The notes beneath the pieces are model-generated. The model made no database searches and was not told the origin of the DNA. It saw only the letters and a program-made list of their open reading frames with translations. A stretch of 18,055 bases of DNA from an uncultured Allobaculum sp. GTDB taxonomy: Bacteria; Bacillota_I; Bacilli_A; Erysipelotrichales; Erysipelotrichaceae. The translations under genes were made by a program, and so were the position numbers. Numbering within the stretch: position 1 is the stretch's first letter; the number at the start of each line of letters is the position of its first letter. Shown here piece by piece: positions 14,238 to 18,055 of the stretch. Where the stretch lies: positions 1-18,055 of the forward strand of contig CAOKFJ010000007.1 of the NCBI GenBank assembly GCA_948467695.1, given 5' to 3'.

Positions 14238-15411
14238 CGCTCTCTCCTCCTAAAATCGCCTGCTGCAGGCGCATGATTTCTTCGATATCGGCATCGGTCG
14301 ATTTCTCTTCCGGAATCTTGTCGTACCATTCAGGAAGTTTTTCTTTTTCACGTTTCGTTTTGTATTTCCGGCGTGTCTTTGCCGAGGCATCGCTTTGTTC
14401 GAGCTGCTCCAGACAAGCCTGACGTGTCGTGACTTTCGCACGAACCATGTTGTTGGCAAGTGTGCGGACAAAACCGGCATGAAAACCGTCCTCGTTTTTC
14501 TTCATGCAGTACTCAATCAGTGTATTGATGACTTCATTGGGCAGTTTCTTCTCTTCGACCAGCGAAGCAAGAAGCTTGCGCTCCGAGGGGAGGATGTCCG
14601 CATTGTCCGGCTGCCGGCTTTTAAGAAAGGTGATCGGCGACTGCATGAAGTCATCGGGATTGCCTGACCCGATTTTTCTGGTTTTCTCCAGATCGGAGAC
14701 AATCGCTTCAAAATCGATCCAGCTTTTTTTCTCGCGCAGATGACGCACCACGAAAACTCTCATGGATTTTTCATCGATGCCATACAGATTGGCTAGATGC
14801 GCAATGCGGGACATGTTTTCCCGGCTTCGCACCCTTGTCGGGATCGCATTGTGCATGCCCTGGAAAAACTCGTTCCAGTTGAACGGATAGGCATCGACAT
14901 CATGCCAGTCCTGCACATACTCCTTCATCGCTTCTTCTTTTTGCAAAGTCCATACCGTTTCCAGAACATTTGTTTCAATGCGCGCGGTGATATTGCGCAT
15001 CTTTCCCTTGCGCGCGACAGGATGGCGCAGTCTGGTCAGACGCTCCATTCCCTCTTCGCCGACGGCTTCAAAGAACAGGCGTCCAAGAAGCGGATCAGAA
15101 AGAAAAGCTTCCTGATTTTTGGGCGCCACGACTTCTATCGCGCATACGGCATGATCCTCTTCTTCAAATGTGTGAACAAGCATCAGTTCTTCAAGCTTGC
15201 ACAGCGCCGCTTCAAGCATCGCATCGCTGCATCCGCTAAGCGTCTTCAGATCCTCTAGATCTGCCTGGTCGCCAAGTTCGCCTAAACTGATGAAAAATTC
15301 ATAGACAAGGCACGCCTGCGCTCCCGCAATCGGGCGGTAGAGCAGGTTGAGATCCGCAATCCAGTGCATCGACAGATCATACGGGATGATGATCTGACAT
15401 TCGCTGCTCAT
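14218..15411 (-). CDS. dnaB: Replication initiation and membrane attachment protein DnaB (Firmicutes DnaB, DnaD-domain)
   Basis: A primosome component that with DnaD and DnaI recruits the replicative helicase; it is not the helicase called DnaB in E. coli. The 397-residue protein has a winged-helix-like N-terminal half and a DnaD/DnaB_2 domain at about residues 270-345 (SPITFLKSRQ, LPSERKLLASLVEEKKLPNE, FVRTLANNMVRAKVTT). A basic linker of Lys/Arg runs and a Glu/Asp-rich tail follow. This is somewhat shorter than the roughly 470 of B. subtilis. The ATG at 15411 overlaps the coaE stop by 4 nt (ATGA), with AAAGGG about 9 nt upstream. Position directly before dnaI supports the call. Confidence 0.92.
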   Translation of the reverse strand: MSSECQIIIPYDLSMHWIADLNLLYRPIAGAQACLVYEFFISLGELGDQADLEDLKTLSGCSDAMLEAALCKLEELMLVHTFEEEDHAVCAIEVVAPKNQEAFLSDPLLGRLFFEAVGEEGMERLTRLRHPVARKGKMRNITARIETNVLETVWTLQKEEAMKEYVQDWHDVDAYPFNWNEFFQGMHNAIPTRVRSRENMSRIAHLANLYGIDEKSMRVFVVRHLREKKSWIDFEAIVSDLEKTRKIGSGNPDDFMQSPITFLKSRQPDNADILPSERKLLASLVEEKKLPNEVINTLIEYCMKKNEDGFHAGFVRTLANNMVRAKVTTRQACLEQLEQSDASAKTRRKYKTKREKEKLPEWYDKIPEEKSTDADIEEIMRLQQAILGGESDAEDKA

Positions 15412-16004
15412 CGTCCGCTTCCCTTTCGCACGTCTTCAAGATAGCCGTCGATGATCTTTTCCAGATCTTTTTCGGTTCTATCGTTTTCCAGGACACGATC
15501 GGAAGCGGCTTTTTTCCTGTCCACCGGATACTGAAGCGCAAGTCTTCTTGTCGCTTCCTCGCGGGAGATATTGCGTCCGCTTTCCAGTCGGCAAAGCGCG
15601 GTTTCTGTAGAGCAGACAACCGTCCAGACTTCATCAAAAAGATGTTCAAGAGAACATTCAAAGAGCAGCGGAACTTCCGCAGCGCATACATCTGTCTGCT
15701 CGCCAATCCAGTTTTTCAGATCCCGAACGATGAGCGGATGAAGAATCTGCTCCATTCTCTTACGCTTGTCCGGATTCTCGAACATGGCATCAGCCATCGC
15801 CTGACGGTCAATATTTCCCTGCTCATCCGTATAGAGCAGCCCGGCCTTTTTCAGCTCCGTATAGCCGTCATGATTTTTTTCAAGCAGAGCGGCATTGATG
15901 CCGTCGCAGTCGATGGTCGGAATGCGTCTGGAGAGAATGCGCTTGGCTGTGCTTTTGCCTGATCCCATGCTTCCCGTAATTCCAATTACTTTTCGATCTG
16001 ACAT
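15408..16004 (-). CDS. coaE: Dephospho-CoA kinase CoaE
   Basis: Phosphorylates dephospho-CoA to coenzyme A, the last step of CoA synthesis. The 198-residue protein begins with the P-loop (GITGSMGSGKST, K17) and continues with the CoaE pattern IPTIDCDGINAALLE, HPLIVRDL and VPLLFE. A typical ~200-residue length supports the ATG at 16004. A longer frame from 16073 would add residues unlike the family. There is no clear Shine-Dalgarno sequence before this ATG, and it lies 19 nt inside the mutM 3' end, so translation probably depends on ribosomes finishing mutM. The 3' end overlaps dnaB by 4 nt. polA-mutM-coaE is a conserved Firmicutes order. Confidence 0.93.
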   Translation of the reverse strand: MSDRKVIGITGSMGSGKSTAKRILSRRIPTIDCDGINAALLEKNHDGYTELKKAGLLYTDEQGNIDRQAMADAMFENPDKRKRMEQILHPLIVRDLKNWIGEQTDVCAAEVPLLFECSLEHLFDEVWTVVCSTETALCRLESGRNISREEATRRLALQYPVDRKKAASDRVLENDRTEKDLEKIIDGYLEDVRKGSGR

Positions 16005-16837
16005 TTGGGGCAGTACCAGGTTCCCCGCTGACCGACACGTGTATACACCACATCGGTGCCGCCGTTCTGGCACTTTCCCTCCTTTCCATGAACTTTCAGC
16101 TGATCCTGATAGCTTCCCGCATGACCTGTGCCGTACGAGAAAGAACGGATCGTGGAACCGCCGCAGCGCATCGCTTCGGCAAGGATGCGTCTTGCGGCGT
16201 TCAGAATGCGCTGCCAGTCTTCAAGGCTTAAATGGCTGGCGGCGCTTTTTGGCGAAATACCCGCTTCGAAAAGGATTTCGTCCGCATAAATATTGCCGAT
16301 ACCCGCAATCAGCGACTGGTCGAGCAGAATGTTTTTGATCGGCGCTTTTCGCTTTTTTACCGCTTCGAACAGATCGTTGGCAGTAAGGCTTTCGTCGAGC
16401 GCGTCTTTGCCCACTTTTTCGAGTGCCGGCAGCGTGCGCCAGTCTTTGACTTTTTCGTACAGGGACAGGCGTCCGAATTTGCGCGTGTCGCGATAGCACA
16501 GAATCCTTCCATCCGATAAATCAAATTCAGCATGGATATGCTTGCCGTCTTTGATCGGATCAACCGCTTCGAATTCGGCGCGGTTGTTGAAAATCAGAAA
16601 CTTTCCTTCCATACGCAGATGACTGACAAGATCCTTGTCGTCGAGTTCGATCACGATGTACTTGCCCAGACGATAGAAGGATCGGAAATGCTCGCCGGCA
16701 ATATCGTGTTCAAACTGCTCGACAGACAGATTGGAACACAGACCGGGATACGTAATCGTGCATTTTTCAATCATCGCTCCGGTGAGTTCCTGCTGCAGAT
16801 ACGCGATGACGTTCTGGACTTCAGGGGCTTCCGGCAT
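15986..16837 (-). CDS. mutM: Formamidopyrimidine-DNA glycosylase MutM (Fpg), atypical zinc finger
   Basis: Removes 8-oxoguanine and formamidopyrimidines from DNA and cuts the abasic site by beta,delta-elimination. The 283-residue protein has the catalytic N-terminal P2 and E3 (MPEAPEV, where most members have MPELPEV), the K in the RLGKYI strand, HLRMEGKF, the helix-two-turn-helix region LIAGIGNIYADEILF, and the C-terminal zinc finger with conserved arginine R271. The finger has only three of the four cysteines: C256, then Gly at 259 where the second Cys belongs, then C276 and C279. All spacings are otherwise exact. The start ATG overlaps the polA stop by 1 nt (TAATG) with GAGG 7 nt upstream. 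Otherwise a complete, normal-length member. Confidence 0.94.
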   Translation of the reverse strand: MPEAPEVQNVIAYLQQELTGAMIEKCTITYPGLCSNLSVEQFEHDIAGEHFRSFYRLGKYIVIELDDKDLVSHLRMEGKFLIFNNRAEFEAVDPIKDGKHIHAEFDLSDGRILCYRDTRKFGRLSLYEKVKDWRTLPALEKVGKDALDESLTANDLFEAVKKRKAPIKNILLDQSLIAGIGNIYADEILFEAGISPKSAASHLSLEDWQRILNAARRILAEAMRCGGSTIRSFSYGTGHAGSYQDQLKVHGKEGKCQNGGTDVVYTRVGQRGTWYCPKCQIEK

Positions 16838-18055
16838 TATTTCGCCTCGTACCAGCTGCGTCCTGCCTGCACGCTTGCTTCAAGCGGTACCTGCAGTTCC
16901 ATTGCCTGGTCCATAATCGACGGAATCAGGTTTTCCATCAGTTCTTTTTCCTCATCGGGAACAAGGAAAATCAGTTCATCGTGAATCTGGAGAATCATCT
17001 GCGATTTAAGATTTCGCTCGACAAGCTCGTTTCGCATGCGAATCATCGCGATTTTGATCAGATCGGCAGCAGATCCCTGAATCGGTGCGTTCATGGCGGC
17101 GCGTTTTCCGAATTCGCGTGTCATGAAGTTCTTGTCGTTGATTTCCGGAATCTCTCTGCGTCTGTGAAGAAGGGTTTCGACATAGCCGTTCTCTTCGCAG
17201 AACGCGATCAGGCCGTCCATAAAGCGATGAATGTTGGGGTAGTTTTCAAAGTAGGCTTCAATGAATTCTTTGGCCTGCTTGCGTGTGATGCCCAGTTCCT
17301 GCGACAGACCGAAATCGGTCTGGCCGTAGATGATGGCAAAGTTGACGGTTTTGGCGATGCGGCGCTGGTCGGCAGTGACGTCTTCGGGTTCCACACCGAA
17401 AATGACCGAAGCGGTGCGTTTATGAATATCGATGCCTTCTTTGAACGCCTGAATCATGAACTCTTCATCCGCCATATGCGCAAGCATGCGCAGTTCAACC
17501 TGCGAATAGTCAGCCGAGATCAGCCAGTATCCTTCAGGCGCGACAAACGCCTTGCGGATTTCTCTGCCCTCTTCGTTTTTGATCGAGATGTTCTGCAGGT
17601 TGGGATCGGATGACGAAAGTCTTCCGGTCTGTGTCATCGTCTGGTTGAATGTCGTGTAGATTTTTCCGTCAATGATGTAGCGGGTCAGTCCGTCGATATA
17701 CGTTCCGACAATTTTCGCGTACTTGCGGTATTCCATGATCTCTTCAATGATCGGGTGATAGCCGCGCATTTTTTCCAGGACATCCGCTGCGGTGGAGCGT
17801 TTCTTTCCTCCGCCTTTGAGATTGAGTTCATCAAAAAGAACGACGCCTAGCTGCTTGGGCGAATTGATTTTGAACTCATGTCCGGCGTATTCGTAAATGC
17901 GCGCGGAAATTTCGTCCATGCGTCTCTGGTACTCGATGCCTGTCTGTTCAAGAATTGCGGCATCGCAGGCAATGCCGCGGCATTCCATCTCGTACAGCAC
18001 TCTGGCAAGCGGAAGTTCGATTTCACGGTACAGTTCGAGCTGATTTTCTTTTTCC
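16837..18055 (-). CDS. polA: DNA polymerase I, C-terminal part (partial, runs off the window)
   Basis: Family A polymerase for Okazaki fragment processing and repair synthesis. About 406 C-terminal residues are present and the frame is open to the right edge, so the start is outside. The in-frame Met at 18000 is internal. Visible motifs are motif A (SADYSQVELRMLAHMAD, first metal-binding Asp), the O-helix motif B (RRIAKTVNFAIIYGQ, with the conserved Lys and Phe, but Ala where most enzymes have Gly after Phe), and motif C (LQIHDELIF, second metal-binding Asp). The Phe of the O-helix predicts discrimination against dideoxynucleotides as in E. coli. The 3'-5' and 5'-3' exonuclease domains lie outside the window, so their state is unknown. 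It overlaps mutM by 1 nt. Confidence 0.96.
   Translation of the reverse strand, partial: EKENQLELYREIELPLARVLYEMECRGIACDAAILEQTGIEYQRRMDEISARIYEYAGHEFKINSPKQLGVVLFDELNLKGGGKKRSTAADVLEKMRGYHPIIEEIMEYRKYAKIVGTYIDGLTRYIIDGKIYTTFNQTMTQTGRLSSSDPNLQNISIKNEEGREIRKAFVAPEGYWLISADYSQVELRMLAHMADEEFMIQAFKEGIDIHKRTASVIFGVEPEDVTADQRRIAKTVNFAIIYGQTDFGLSQELGITRKQAKEFIEAYFENYPNIHRFMDGLIAFCEENGYVETLLHRRREIPEINDKNFMTREFGKRAAMNAPIQGSAADLIKIAMIRMRNELVERNLKSQMILQIHDELIFLVPDEEKELMENLIPSIMDQAMELQVPLEASVQAGRSWYEAK

What the first reader, a model, noticed from the sequence alone, without database searches (positions are those of the whole stretch)
16001..16072. MutM zinc finger has three cysteines instead of four
The C-terminal finger of Fpg is normally C-x2-C-x16-C-x2-C. 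Here the spacing is preserved exactly, but the second cysteine is glycine (codon GGC at 16061-16063). One base change (TGC to GGC) explains it. The catalytic residues and the conserved Arg R271 are intact. Either the finger tolerates a substitute ligand, or zinc is lost, or this is a recent mutation or sequencing error. Loss of Fpg activity would raise G-to-T mutation.
Basis: partly seen in the sequence, partly recalled or inferred. Interest (0 to 1): 0.7.

Follow-up and report, generated by a model that had tools for sequence, protein, structure and literature searches.

The report
MutM missing one zinc-binding cysteine
One draft bacterial genome encodes an otherwise normal DNA-repair enzyme (MutM/Fpg) in which one of four zinc-holding cysteines reads as glycine; no relative examined shares this, so it is probably a recent damaging mutation or a base error rather than a new kind of enzyme.

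Summary
Window 15986-16837 (-) encodes a 283-aa MutM/Fpg (TIGR00577, 270 bits). Its finger reads C256-x2-G259-x16-C276-x2-C279; codon 259 is GGC (16061-16063), one base from TGC. The rest looks like a working MutM: 25 of 26 strictly invariant sites are intact, amino-acid to silent change is 15:5 as in the sister species, mutY is present, and G:C>T:A change is not raised against that sister (p=0.21). A paper whose passages I read says Cys-to-Gly changes in the E. coli Fpg finger abolish DNA binding; a working second-cysteine variant of Lactococcus Fpg supplies a histidine, which the window lacks. So if the base is real, a recent, private, damaging missense change is likeliest; if not, it is a consensus error. 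Without reads or a second strain I cannot separate the two. A tolerated three-cysteine finger is less likely. Low interest.

The parts
15986..16837 (-). mutM/fpg, 283 aa, formamidopyrimidine-DNA glycosylase
   Evidence: TIGR00577 270 bits; AlphaFold2 model mean pLDDT 94.4, best Foldseek match 1r2y MutM, TM 0.91
16001..16072 (-). C-terminal beta-hairpin finger, Cys256 to Cys279, C-x2-G-x16-C-x2-C
   Evidence: read directly; alignment of 216 MutMs
16061..16063 (-). codon 259, GGC (Gly) where 215 of 215 aligned relatives have Cys
16025..16027 (-). Arg271, the invariant finger arginine, intact
   Evidence: 215 of 215 aligned relatives have Arg
15408..16004 (-). coaE; overlaps the end of mutM by 19 bases, its ATG (16004-16002) overlapping the codon of Cys279
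   Evidence: sequence; same ATG context in G002
16837..18055 (-). polA, 3' part, runs off the contig

Best explanation
A recent, private missense change (TGC to GGC) in the sampled strain removed the second of four zinc ligands from an otherwise ordinary MutM. With three cysteines and no His or Cys beside the gap, the finger should hold zinc poorly. The hairpin that presents Arg271 to the DNA phosphates would then be unstable, so the enzyme would bind damaged DNA weakly or not at all (a hypomorph or null). MutY, still encoded, would limit the mutational cost. Shown here: the sequence, its absence from all relatives read, and the conservation of the rest of the protein. Inferred: that the base is real, that zinc is lost, and that activity is lost.
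For: The second cysteine is kept by 221 of 221 readable distinct relatives and by all three same-genus copies read. Only 1 of 26 strictly invariant sites departs. In mutM, private amino-acid to silent changes are 15:5 in the window's lineage and 15:5 in the sister G002, so there is no sign of decay beyond the sister's. [quoted passage not shown] coli Fpg zinc finger abolishes DNA binding (citing work I could not read), and that disrupting zinc coordination impairs DNA binding. The window's assembly does not look error-laden: private departures from invariant sites are 1/162 (murA), 0/144 (fba) and 1/129 (glmM), within the range of the other 29 sequences in each alignment. One mutY match is over cut-off, and no second Fpg/Nei was found in the held, 68% complete genome.
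Against: A single base in one draft assembly (315 contigs, 68% complete), with no reads and no second strain, cannot be told from a consensus error. No clear mutator footprint was found. The AlphaFold2 model folds the finger normally (pLDDT 92-97), but the method ignores zinc and leans on the relatives' alignment; the four-cysteine sister gives the same confidence. In Lactococcus Fpg, ligand changes to His (C248GH, C268H) still complemented a mutator strain, so some fingers tolerate a changed ligand. mutM in the window's lineage has more amino-acid change relative to silent change than the other 13 genes (15:5 against 131:158, p=0.011), which could mean some relaxation, but the same tendency appears in G175 (p=0.03) and G002 (p=0.06), though not in G003 (p=0.64).
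Confidence: 0.42

Rival explanations
1. The base is a consensus or assembly error: the organism has TGC and a normal four-cysteine finger.
For: The change is a single base in one codon of a 315-contig, 68% complete assembly; 221 of 221 readable relatives have the Cys; the other 25 strictly invariant sites are intact; there is no clear mutator signature.
Against: Private departures in murA, fba and glmM are not raised in this assembly, and none of the 14 window genes used has an internal stop. Three other residues near position 259 (E255K, G261T, I263V) also differ from G002, G003 and G175 (4 of 5 comparable sites in 255-263 changed, hypergeometric p=0.0007 for a stretch chosen after the fact; p=0.10 by permutation for the best 9-residue stretch). 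G261T is shared with the same-genus G001 copy, so this cluster is weak evidence.
Confidence: 0.4
2. The finger tolerates the loss: it holds zinc with three cysteines plus water or a nearby side chain (Asp262 is a candidate), or works as a zinc-poor hairpin like the zincless fingers of NEIL1 and plant Fpg, and the enzyme stays active.
For: The other three cysteines, Arg271 and the predicted hairpin are intact. C248GH and C268H variants of L. lactis Fpg complemented a mutator strain (PMC4176347 passages). [quoted passage not shown] Shortened C-x1-C knuckles occur in 3 of 221 relatives.
Against: Those Lactococcus variants replace Cys with His; the window has Gly-Gly, with no His beside the lost ligand. 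E. coli Cys-to-Gly changes abolish DNA binding. Asp at 262 also occurs in 12 of 215 four-Cys relatives, so it is not a specific compensation. If zinc had been dispensable for long, the other three cysteines should have begun to drift (inference).
Confidence: 0.15
3. Long-standing loss of MutM function has made this lineage a G:C>T:A mutator.
For: The G:C>T:A share is slightly above the sister G002 (93/642 against 73/605, p=0.21) and above G003 (71/805, p=0.0008). One private change in polA (FNINS to FKINS, codon AAA) could be a C-to-A change.
Against: G175, whose finger is intact, has a higher share (282/1485). At codon positions 1 and 2 the window's lineage shows no excess (36/323 against 41/333 in G002 and 51/497 in G003). 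The amino-acid to silent ratio of mutM equals the sister's.
Confidence: 0.03

Closest known systems
Bacterial MutM/Fpg with Cys4 beta-ribbon finger (TIGR00577; B. stearothermophilus MutM 1r2y)
   Same: Whole-protein family score, predicted fold (TM 0.91), catalytic residues, Arg271, spacing of the finger
   Different: Second zinc cysteine is glycine
L. lactis Fpg C248GH (PDB 4pd2; PMC4176347 passages)
   Same: Second zinc cysteine replaced, in an otherwise normal Fpg
   Different: A designed change that supplies a histidine; the window supplies none
NEIL2-type Cys3His finger (PMC9266487 passages)
   Same: Three cysteines kept
   Different: NEIL2 has a histidine as fourth ligand; the window has glycine
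Zincless fingers (NEIL1, Arabidopsis MMH; PMC9266487 passages)
   Same: A hairpin presenting an arginine, with an incomplete zinc site
   Different: Those lack zinc-coordinating residues; the window keeps three of four cysteines

Membership tests
MutM/Fpg (TIGR00577) | Whole-protein profile score over curated cut-off | tested here: met
   270 bits against 203.3
MutM/Fpg (TIGR00577) | N-terminal Pro-Glu catalytic pair and other invariant residues | tested here: met
   Pro2 and Glu3 present; 25 of 26 strictly invariant sites kept
MutM/Fpg (TIGR00577) | H2TH domain and Fpg fold | tested here: met
   PF06831 95.8 bits; model matches 1r2y
Cys4 zinc finger of Fpg (PF06827) | Four cysteines, C-x2-C-x16-C-x2-C | tested here: not met
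   C-x2-G; PF06827 19.5 bits, below 21.3
Cys4 zinc finger of Fpg (PF06827) | Binds one zinc ion | not testable with these tools
   needs purified protein
NEIL2-type Cys3His finger | Histidine as substitute ligand | tested here: not met
   residues 257-264 are Q N G G T D V V; no His
Zincless finger | No zinc-coordinating residues in the hairpin | tested here: not met
   three of four cysteines remain

The most novel reading that the evidence does not exclude
A naturally occurring, active bacterial MutM with a three-cysteine finger and no histidine substitute, an intermediate on the way from zinc to zincless fingers.
Probability: 0.1. Interest if true: 0.45.

Novelty: new member of a known kind. 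Interest (0 to 1): 0.18.

Why it matters
Published work says intact zinc ligation is needed for E. coli Fpg to bind DNA (PMC4176347 passage). A natural active three-cysteine MutM would be a test of how such fingers lose zinc, and an inactive one would be a natural repair-deficient strain. As it stands the case rests on one base of one draft genome, so it matters little until that base is confirmed.

Tried and rejected
Hidden frameshift: rejected; neither other frame gives CxxC (read). Clade-wide variant: rejected. Compensating cysteine elsewhere: Cys225 (MRCGG) is not private (7 of 215 relatives have Cys there). Error-laden assembly: not supported by murA, fba and glmM. Backup Fpg/Nei gene: none found in the held genome. 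MutT: only matches below cut-off in all 5 genus genomes, uninformative. AlphaFold2 control on the sister G002 copy: same confidence as the window's model (94.3 against 94.4), so the model does not separate a good zinc site from a bad one. Literature: searches, judged by listed titles and abstract starts, showed no report of a natural three-cysteine MutM; the library is open-access only. The 1993 E. coli papers are not held and are cited through PMC4176347. Of PMC4176347, PMC9266487, PMC3188539, PMC2628661 and PMC7139703 I saw passages only. PMC3188539 says the four cysteines are perfectly conserved in its BaFpg clades; PMC2628661 added nothing on cysteines.

Rows dropped and limits: the alignment of 216 sequences left out L084 and L085 (G001, split gene), L116 (in-frame stop) and L013, L036, L064, L066 and L074 (reading-code or length trouble) by hand, and collapsed identical proteins, which kept them, found the C-x2-C...C-x2-CQ motif in all of these except L116. 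One search kept the best 80 of 587 relatives. One search found matches in 255 of 272 family genomes but listed 150 places (149 genomes); all 150 were read (30 as loci, 120 fetched); the unlisted ones were not looked at. The murA, fba and glmM counts used only the 30 best loci of each search; the polA and coaE counts used the loci whose flanks reach those genes (70 and 63 sequences).

Full report
What is there. The minus-strand ORF at 15986-16837 encodes a 283-aa protein that scores 270 bits against the NCBIfam equivalog for Fpg/MutM (cut-off 203.3). It lies between polA and coaE, and its end overlaps coaE by 19 bases, the coaE ATG overlapping the codon of the fourth finger cysteine. The finger reads KVHGKEGKC-QN-G-GTDVVYTRVGQRGTWYC-PK-CQIEK. 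The second position of the first knuckle is Gly259, codon GGC at 16061-16063, one base from TGC. The Pfam finger model falls just below cut-off (19.5 against 21.3 bits) and matches only the second knuckle, while copies from G002, G003 and G175 pass at 26.2-30.2 bits.

Is it clade-wide? No. Relatives came from 80 genome contigs (best 80 of 587), the five genomes held for the genus (four with a match, the window's own included) and 272 family genomes (255 with a match, 150 places listed and all 150 read). Among 223 distinct proteins, leaving out the window and one copy cut by a stop codon (L116), 221 of 221 keep the second cysteine: 218 as C-x2-C-x16-C-x2-C and 3 (L040, L135, L141) with a knuckle shortened to C-x1-C. 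In an alignment of 216, columns 256, 276, 279 and Arg271 are invariant and column 259 is Cys in all 215 others. The three same-genus copies, 61-66% identical (one of them, G001, only over its second part), all have TGY at this codon. The window differs at 1 of 26 strictly invariant sites; four other sequences of the 216 also have one such private departure each, at other sites.

Is the gene decaying, or the assembly poor? Neither is clear. Measured against three relatives, mutM carries 15 private amino-acid changes to 5 silent ones in the window's lineage and 15 to 5 in the sister G002. Against that, mutM has more amino-acid change than the other 13 genes in the window's lineage (p=0.011), but the same tendency appears in G175 (p=0.03) and G002 (p=0.06), not in G003 (p=0.64), so it looks like a trait of the gene rather than of this lineage. 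Private departures from otherwise invariant sites in neighbouring genes are 1/162 (murA), 0/144 (fba) and 1/129 (glmM), within the range of the other sequences. polA has one (FNINS read as FKINS; mean 0.34 per sequence, 13 of 70 with one or more, the window included) and coaE none of 8. Three more residues close to Gly259 also differ from G002, G003 and G175 (E255K, G261T, I263V). The best-stretch permutation p is 0.10, and G261T is shared with G001, so I put little weight on it.

What would it do? [quoted passage not shown] coli Fpg finger abolish DNA binding (citing papers I could not read), and that disrupting the zinc site of Lactococcus Fpg impairs DNA binding. The same paper made the second-cysteine change in Lactococcus as C248GH, supplying a histidine as in NEIL2. 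That variant kept zinc, its structure and complementation of a mutator strain, and C268H also complemented. The C248GH structure is PDB 4pd2, which also appears among the fold matches. The window has Gly-Gly with no histidine, so by that precedent zinc binding should fail (inference). Zincless fingers exist in NEIL1 and Arabidopsis MMH (PMC9266487 passages), but they lack the zinc residues, whereas here three of four are kept. AlphaFold2 folds the window's finger as well as the sister's (mean pLDDT 94.4 and 94.3), which says nothing about zinc.

Mutational consequence. A lasting MutM loss should raise G:C>T:A. Over 14 window genes, 93 of 642 private changes in the window's lineage are of that kind, 73 of 605 in G002 (p=0.21), 71 of 805 in G003 (p=0.0008) and 282 of 1485 in G175 (p=0.013, in the other direction), which has an intact finger. 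At codon positions 1 and 2 there is no excess (36/323, 41/333, 51/497 and 162/941). So no lasting mutator is visible; a very recent loss would not show. If the ancestor was TGC, the change to GGC is A:T>C:G, not the kind that MutM loss causes. mutY is present, which limits the effect of losing MutM alone (established knowledge of the GO system, not tested here).

Verdict. A recent damaging missense change and a consensus error are about equally likely and cannot be separated with the data on hand. A tolerated three-cysteine finger is possible but has published evidence against it. This is an ordinary MutM with one private change.

Noticed in passing
L005:3001-4392 and 21 of the 150 places listed, with open frames of 463-505 aa: MutM and CoaE are fused in one ORF in at least one family member: L005 (the same protein as L182) carries Fapy_DNA_glyco, H2TH, zf-FPG_IleRS and CoaE in 464 aa; 21 listed open frames have a length that fits such a fusion, of which only this one was scanned. 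In the window the two genes are separate but overlap by 19 bases.
   Followed up: partly
L040, L135 (G225), L141 (G224): First finger knuckle shortened to C-x1-C, four cysteines kept.
   Followed up: partly
17869-17871: polA motif FNINSPKQL reads FKINSPKQL; the Asn is invariant in the other aligned sequences with a letter there.
   Followed up: partly
G001:C1:844436-845238 (L084, L085): Same-genus mutM split into two pieces in a single-contig genome rated 58% complete; perhaps a sequencing indel, not checked.
   Followed up: no
residues 92-98 of the window's MutM (about 16564-16544): A 7-residue stretch (VDPIKDG) that aligns to gaps in 207-213 of 215 relatives.
   Followed up: no
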